Source: Alphaproteobacteria bacterium (GTDB lineage Bacteria; Pseudomonadota; Alphaproteobacteria; UBA2966). From it: a DNA stretch of 33,768 nucleotides. This document shows positions 1-780 of the stretch, in pieces; the stretch's first letter is position 1; every line of letters begins with the position of its first letter. The position numbers and the translations under genes were made by a program. The stretch is from assembly GCA_030740435.1 (NCBI GenBank), contig JASLXG010000132.1:1-33768 (forward strand). Reading direction: 5' to 3'. The notes beneath the pieces were generated by a model. It searched no databases, was not told the DNA's origin, and saw nothing but the letters and a program-made list of their open reading frames with translations.

Positions 1-31
1 ACGAAACGTCCAATCCGGCATAGTACTTCAT
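1..31 (-). CDS. IS110-family transposase, N-terminal 10 codons (runs off left edge)
   Basis: On the minus strand an ATG at 31-29 opens a frame reading MKYYAGLDVS before the window ends. This is the characteristic N-terminus of IS110-family DEDD transposases, where the Asp of GLDVS is the first acidic residue of the RuvC-like catalytic domain. A good ribosome binding site (AAGGAG, positions 44-39) lies 7 bases upstream. The rest of the protein, including the C-terminal Tnp_20 domain with its catalytic Ser, lies outside the window, so it cannot be told whether the copy is intact. Only ten residues are visible, but the motif, the ribosome binding site and the leader sequence agree. Confidence 0.75.
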   Translation of the reverse strand, partial: MKYYAGLDVS

Positions 32-47
32 GGCTGCTCTCCTTAAC

Positions 48-170
48 GCTTCTTGTGGCTGGAACATCCAGACCACGTTCCAAAAGCTCGGAGAGTAGCC
101 ACCCTCAGCGCCGATTACCCCATCTCTGTGGTCAATTCTCCGTGCTTCAAGTGGCCTGTACTCGAGGATG
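48..170 (-). ncRNA. Candidate IS110 bridge RNA in the transposase leader
   Basis: In IS110 elements such as IS621 the non-coding end upstream of the transposase is transcribed into a structured bridge RNA that base-pairs with donor and target DNA. Here the corresponding stretch is non-coding and contains a hairpin: TGGAAC at 60-65 pairs perfectly with GTTCCA at 77-82 around an 11-base loop. The ends given are approximate. The position follows from family knowledge and the hairpin is seen; the presence of a functional RNA is inferred. Confidence 0.35.
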
Positions 171-217
171 TGGGCATGTCTCAACCCGCCTGCGTGGAGG
201 GTGGGGGGCGGTTCGCC

Positions 218-769
218 CTATTCCGCGGGCAGAGGAAACTCGTCCAGATACTTGAGATACCCCTCCTCGACGTCGATCTCGAGGCTGGCCAAAATACGTA
301 CGACGCCGTTGTAGAAGCCGATGGTCAGCACCAGGTCGGTGAGGCATTCGCTGTCGAGGTCCTGCGCCAGCGCGGCATAGGTCTCTTCCGAGATGGCCAA
401 GTCCGTGGTCATCTCGCGGGCCGCCTTCAGCACCCAGCGCGCCAGCGGCTCGAGCTCGCTCTCGCGGCCGGCGCTTTCCTCGGCCAGGGCGGCCAAGTCG
501 TCGTCCGTGACGCCGAAGTCGCGGCCGATCTCGATGTGGTGGCTGTATTCGTAGAGCGAGCGCGTGAGGTAGCCGACTTGCAGGATGGCGAGCTCGCGCA
601 ACCGGGTATCGAGCGGGCTTTCATAGCGGATGTAGCGGCCCATGCGGCCGAAGTTGCGGGCCCCGCCGGGGCTGTTGGCGATCGCCTTGTAGATGTTGAG
701 GTCGCGCGCCAGCAGGTCCTGGTCGTCGGCCGAGAGATCGGCTTTCGTGATGTAGGGGATTCTCGCCAT
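218..769 (-). CDS. Carboxymuconolactone decarboxylase family protein
   Basis: 183 residues, all-helical CMD/AhpD-fold protein. The start is the ATG at 769 (MARIPYITKADLS); the longer open frame upstream is low-complexity Arg/Gly and overlaps the preceding SDR gene. The core has the family pattern of a long hydrophobic helix (LRELAILQVGYL) followed by YEYSHHIEIG, where AhpD-type proteins have CxxC. Both redox cysteines are absent, so a peroxidase function is unlikely and a gamma-carboxymuconolactone-decarboxylase-like or unknown hydrolytic role is more likely. It is the last gene of a three-gene minus-strand set with an SDR (11 bases upstream) and an SMP-30-type lactonase, a combination typical of sugar-acid or aromatic catabolism. 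The substrate is unknown. Confidence 0.88.
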   Translation of the reverse strand: MARIPYITKADLSADDQDLLARDLNIYKAIANSPGGARNFGRMGRYIRYESPLDTRLRELAILQVGYLTRSLYEYSHHIEIGRDFGVTDDDLAALAEESAGRESELEPLARWVLKAAREMTTDLAISEETYAALAQDLDSECLTDLVLTIGFYNGVVRILASLEIDVEEGYLKYLDEFPLPAE

Positions 770-780
770 GGCTTCGGTTC

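What the first reader, a model, noticed from the sequence alone, without database searches (positions are those of the whole stretch)
1..175. IS110 transposase start with a candidate bridge-RNA leader
Seen: ten N-terminal codons of a GLDVS-type transposase on the minus strand, a good ribosome binding site, and a leader of up to 186 bases containing a 6-bp hairpin at 60-82. Known: IS110 elements encode a programmable bridge RNA in this leader. Inferred: the leader here carries one whose loops would predict the target sequence.
Basis: partly seen in the sequence, partly recalled or inferred. Interest (0 to 1): 0.6.

Follow-up and report, generated by a model that had tools for sequence, protein, structure and literature searches.

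The report
IS1111-type insertion element's left end
The window starts inside the left end of a multicopy mobile element whose short leader probably limits production of its own transposase, while the RNA that guides the element to its target (a repeated CACAGAG motif) is encoded at the other end, outside the window; it is a well-preserved member of a known kind.

Summary
Confirmed: window 1-31 (minus strand) starts an IS110-family transposase (MKYYAGLDVS) with a good Shine-Dalgarno at 38-44; the frame runs off the contig edge. The same left end recurs on 14 other contigs of this draft genome. Uninterrupted sites put the element's tip at 123: the leader is 92 nt, not 186, and 124 onward is host target DNA.

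Not supported: a bridge RNA in the leader. The anatomy is IS1111-group: short left end, long right end, 8-bp subterminal inverted repeats. Right ends were recovered from ten contig ends. A covariance model from 33 relatives' right ends finds the bridge RNA there (67.7 bits, E 1e-16) and nothing credible on the leader's coding strand. Its guide reads CACAGAG+AT, matching the octamer repeat interrupted at all 16 left junctions. Across 42 elements, target and donor guides match their own element in the right end (p 2e-4) but not in the leader.

The leader instead forms a conserved stem hiding the Shine-Dalgarno; its antisense strand carries a hairpin shaped like the bridge RNA's donor-side hairpin. 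This resembles ISPpu9, where an antisense RNA (Asr9) is thought to open the leader. New member of a known kind; the conserved antisense hairpin is the least expected part.

The parts
1..31 (-). first ten codons of the transposase, MKYYAGLDVS; the frame runs off the contig
   Evidence: extended to MKYYAGLDVSLKE by other contig ends; same start as a full-length homologue
32..123 (-). left-end noncoding region (leader), 92 nt; tip of the element at 123
   Evidence: shared block boundary in 16 left junctions against uninterrupted sites
38..44 (-). Shine-Dalgarno AAGGAGA
   Evidence: sequence
32..42 (-). 3' arm of the leader stem, GGAGAGCAGCC, covering the Shine-Dalgarno
   Evidence: fold; arm pairing conserved across 51 leaders, p 5e-4; covariation
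90..100 (-). 5' arm of the leader stem, GGCTACTCTCC
55..76 (+). antisense hairpin GTGGCTGGAACATCCAGACCAC, shaped like the bridge RNA's donor-side hairpin
   Evidence: 11.3 bits at 38-76 +; same place and strand in five relatives; strict motif count
111..118 (-). left subterminal inverted repeat GTAATCGG, partner of CCGATTAC in the right end
124..130 (-). left half of the target, CACAGAG (core AG at 124-125); host DNA
   Evidence: uninterrupted sites; left guide CACAGAGAT in the right-end RNA
131..197 (.). host palindromic repeat into which the element inserted
   Evidence: repeat matches without the element at C2, C7, C26, C35, C99, C134, C199, C210

Best explanation
The window begins in one copy of a multicopy IS1111-group element of the IS110 family. 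SHOWN by sequence: its left end is 92 nt, its right end (outside the window) carries a predicted bridge (seek) RNA, and the copies interrupt the octamer array ACCACAGAG|GCACAGAG. INFERRED from family anatomy and published work: the right-end RNA binds the transposase; [quoted passage not shown] another (UUUAGUGCC, the 5' one) pairs with the right target G|GCAC; a third (ACAGAAG) reads the donor right tip; strands are exchanged at the shared AG core. INFERRED: the leader in the window is a translation control. Its outer stem hides the Shine-Dalgarno and keeps the transposase low, and an antisense RNA from the leader, like Asr9 of ISPpu9, may open it. The antisense hairpin at 55-76 resembles the bridge RNA's donor-side hairpin, which could let the two RNAs pair.
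For: 16 left junctions and 9 of 10 right junctions at one position of the octamer array; 8-bp subterminal inverted repeats and a right end longer than the left; covariance model of 33 relatives, own element excluded, hits the own right end at 67.7 bits, E 1e-16, with two-sided changes in 12 of 15 pairs; guide tests in 42 elements p 2e-4 each with null opposite-strand controls and null in leaders; shared core dinucleotide in 41 of 42; leader arm pairing p 5e-4 and 9 of 16 leader pairs with two-sided changes; ISPpu9 precedent for a leader hiding the ribosome-binding site (PMC8450116).
Against: The transposase beyond 13 codons and any complete copy are missing from the assembly. The right target guide of this element matches only 5 of 8 bases and is not significant by itself (rank 0.62). 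One right end (C29) lies at another sequence. The leader fold of this one sequence is only modestly better than shuffles (z -1.8). No expression or transposition data exist here.
Confidence: 0.88

Rival explanations
1. One reading: the leader itself encodes the bridge RNA, as in IS621 and other IS110-group elements.
For: The leader is structured and most IS110-group elements carry the RNA in the left end (PMC11208160).
Against: No guides in leaders of 42 elements; model hits the right end, not the leader's coding strand; left end short, right end long.
Confidence: 0.03
2. The leader's conserved stem matters as DNA: inverted hairpins at both ends are binding or folding sites for the transposase, not a control of translation.
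For: The same hairpin shape lies in inverted orientation at the two ends.
Against: The outer arm abuts the start codon and covers the Shine-Dalgarno in most relatives, and in ISPpu9 weakening such a structure raised translation 26-fold (PMC8450116).
Confidence: 0.12
3. The element recognises the folded shape of the palindromic host repeat, and the CACAGAG match in the RNA is incidental.
For: The arrays are palindromic pairs, and IS1111 elements are known in REPs and attC sites (PMC11187229); the right guide fits only in part.
Against: The 9-base match falls exactly in the guide column that in relatives matches each element's own left flank.
Confidence: 0.06

Closest known systems
ISPpu9 of Pseudomonas putida KT2440 (IS110 family, in REP sequences; PMC8450116)
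   Same: Inserts at one position of a palindromic host repeat with AG at the junction; leader folds over the ribosome-binding site; an RNA is encoded downstream of the transposase gene.
   Different: Different target; longer 5' UTR there (244 nt); the antisense RNA Asr9 was detected there, here only a conserved antisense hairpin is seen.
IS1111-group elements with seekRNA, such as ISEc11, ISPa11, ISKpn4 (PMC11187229)
   Same: Subterminal inverted repeats, RNA in the right end, top-strand guide 5' of bottom-strand guide.
   Different: Own guides and target; no RNA sequencing here; transposase body not assembled.
IS621 and IS110-group bridge RNA elements (PMC11208160)
   Same: DEDD transposase family; RNA with target and donor guides; shared core dinucleotide.
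   Different: There the RNA is in a long left end and repeats are 2-3 bp; here it is in the right end with 8-bp repeats; core AG instead of CT.
Related alphaproteobacterial elements found here (L093, L101, L107-L186)
   Same: Same end motifs, same RNA layout; most share the leader stem.
   Different: Each has its own guides and target; a pattern for ACCACAGAG beside this type of leader found nothing in 84,980 species genomes.

Membership tests
IS110 family (DEDD transposase) | Transposase with DEDD_Tnp_IS110 and Transposase_20 domains | tested here: inconclusive
   Only 13 codons are held for this element; full-length relatives with the same ends have both domains
IS110 family (DEDD transposase) | Site-specific insertion without long target duplication, shared core dinucleotide | tested here: met
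   16 left and 9 of 10 right junctions; AG on both sides
IS1111 group | Subterminal inverted repeats of 7-17 bp | tested here: met
   GTAATCGG / CCGATTAC, 8 bp
IS1111 group | Long noncoding right end carrying the guide RNA, short left end | tested here: met
   92 nt left; at least 254 nt right with a 67.7-bit RNA match
IS1111 group | Top-strand guide 5' of bottom-strand guide in the RNA | tested here: met
   Order met in the 42-element set; in this element the 5' guide matches only 5 of 8
IS110 group (IS621-like, RNA in left end) | Bridge RNA in the leader | tested here: not met
ISPpu9-type regulation | Leader stem covering the ribosome-binding site | tested here: met
   (by prediction and covariation)
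ISPpu9-type regulation | Antisense RNA transcribed across the leader | not testable with these tools
   Conserved antisense hairpin seen; no expression data

The most novel reading that the evidence does not exclude
In this IS1111 clade the leader's antisense strand encodes a conserved small RNA whose hairpin mimics, and can pair with, the donor-side hairpin of the bridge RNA, so that guide-RNA supply and transposase translation are coupled in one circuit.
Probability: 0.3. Interest if true: 0.6.

Novelty: new member of a known kind. Interest (0 to 1): 0.3.

Why it matters
It shows how a contig-edge fragment of such an element can mislead: the leader is the control region and the guide RNA is at the far end. 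It adds a natural, high-copy example in which a guide RNA's target reading can be checked against many insertion sites, and about 40 relatives with mapped ends in which donor and target guides can be read off directly. The conserved antisense hairpin, if expressed, would tie the published ISPpu9 antisense control to the bridge RNA itself.

Tried and rejected
GCCTCT, 3' of CACAGAG in the right-end RNA, was first taken as the right target guide; the relatives showed that guide lies 5' instead, so it was dropped. An apparent stop codon (GTT TAG) in the right end was first read as the transposase end; alignment with relatives puts it inside the RNA region. Plain sequence similarity between antisense leader and right end: none above shuffles and no own-versus-other signal, so the resemblance is of shape, not sequence. 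Rfam: no family in the window or right end. Exact end motifs in viral contigs and right end in plasmids: none. Right end in 385 class members: only the own genome convincing. Same-target pattern in 84,980 species genomes: none. A MITE reading of C133 was considered; it looks more like a fold-back of the left end, but was not settled.

Full report
What is at the coordinates. The minus strand of window 1-31 reads MKYYAGLDVS and runs off the contig; AAGGAGA at 38-44 is a good Shine-Dalgarno. The window is contig C132 of a 236-contig draft genome. The window's first 132 bases recur at the ends of 12 other contigs, with partial or rearranged copies on two more (C121, C133), and contigs end a near-constant distance inside the shared block: the usual break of a short-read assembly at a multicopy element. 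The longest end reads MKYYAGLDVSLKE. The transposase body is not in the assembly.

Where the element ends. Uninterrupted copies of the flanking repeat read TTGACCACAGAG|GCACAGAGRCACAGAG, whereas all 16 left junctions read ACCACAGAG|ATGGGGTAATCGG. The tip is window 123 and the leader is 92 nt. Searching for the octamer array showed contigs that carry it about 125 bases from their end; these begin with the right end...TTGACATCAACCAACCGATTACAGAAG|GCACAGAG. Ten right ends were found, nine at the octamer target and one (C29) at GCCGCAG. GTAATCGG and CCGATTAC form 8-bp subterminal inverted repeats. The 11-mer CACAGAGGCAC occurs 60 times in the genome, the reversed control not at all.

What family. 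A homologue with the same first 13 residues led to full elements in other genomes; those tested carry DEDD_Tnp_IS110 and Transposase_20 and pass the cut-off of the NCBI IS110 RNA-guided transposase model. A genome-collection search gave 80 more. After mapping both ends by their inverted repeats, 42 distinct elements (this one included) remained: left ends median about 115 nt, right ends median about 261 nt, and the last two bases of the left flank equal the last two of the right end in 41 of 42 (AG in 37, AC in 4). This is the IS1111 arrangement described in PMC11208160 and PMC11187229.

Where the bridge RNA is. For each element, the left flank plus AT, the reverse complement of core plus right flank, and the last bases of the right end were sought in that element's right-end RNA and compared with the other elements' RNAs. 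All three match their own element better (p 2e-4 each, the floor of 5000 permutations); the opposite-strand controls do not (p 0.68, 0.85). The permutations do not correct for relatedness of the elements. The same tests in the leaders are null. The order in the RNA is top-strand guide, hairpin, bottom-strand guide, donor guide, the order reported for IS1111. A covariance model from 33 relatives, this element excluded, shows two-sided changes in 12 of 15 pairs and hits this element's right end at 67.7 bits. In the window it finds nothing with default filters; with filters off the leader's coding strand gives only scores below 0 bits.

What this element's guides read. CACAGAGAT, followed by TGG, sits at the bottom-strand guide position; CACAGAG is the left half of the target. 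TTTAGTGCC at the top-strand position fits G|GCAC contiguously and the rest poorly (5 of 8); this guide alone would not have been recognised (rank 0.62). ACAGAAG at the donor position equals the right tip. Together the guides cover CACAGAG|GCAC. That pairing drives target choice is inferred from published work on relatives, not shown here.

What the leader does. Its two arms, window 90-100 and 32-42, pair across the Shine-Dalgarno; across 51 leaders the arm next to the start codon pairs with its own leader better than with others (p 5e-4), and in the leader alignment 9 of 16 predicted pairs change on both sides. In ISPpu9 mutations weakening such a leader raised translation, an antisense RNA (Asr9) from the same region is proposed to open it, and a downstream RNA (Ssr9) pairs with Asr9 in vitro (PMC8450116). 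I infer the same kind of control here. That Ssr9 corresponds to the bridge RNA is my inference from its position.

An unplanned observation. The bridge-RNA model gives an 11.3-bit match on the antisense strand of the leader at 38-76; in five relatives the best hit in 600 bases is at the same place and strand, with scores of 4.4 to 10.4 bits. The strict shape (4 pairs, one base, 3 pairs, loop, 3 pairs, GA, 4 pairs) occurs in 22 of 51 antisense leaders, 1 of 51 sense leaders and 6.9% of shuffles, and in 30 of 42 right ends. The leaders are related, so these are not independent events. Sequence similarity is absent. The shape fits the reported Asr9-Ssr9 pairing, but its role is not shown.

Verdict.

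Noticed in passing
L016 1522-1660 (C133:1782-1920): The left end occurs as an inverted pair, 46-bp arms 91% complementary, 47 nt apart: a fold-back of the leader or a small nonautonomous derivative.
   Followed up: partly
window 55-76, + strand; relatives L118, L128, L146, L159, L175: The antisense strand of the leader carries a hairpin shaped like the donor-side hairpin of the bridge RNA; role unknown.
   Followed up: partly
C2, C7, C8, C26, C35, C37, C41, C74, C98, C99, C128, C134, C170, C199, C210: The host genome holds many palindromic pairs of CACAGAG octamer arrays, several just after stop codons; their origin and function were not studied.
   Followed up: no
L081 (C29:15401 end): One right end is followed by GCCGCAG instead of the octamer array: an off-target insertion or a later rearrangement.
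   Followed up: no
All left and right junctions of the own genome: Insertions lie only after the first octamer unit (ACCACAGAG), never after a later GCACAGAG unit that the guides should also accept; the reason is unclear.
   Followed up: no
L028 (C179:74-1105) and L029/L030 (C61 start, C3 end): The genome carries two other IS110-family elements, unrelated in sequence to this one.
   Followed up: no
window 225-780 versus C21:27398-28044 (L002): The gene next to the insertion has an 84% identical second copy elsewhere in the genome.
   Followed up: no
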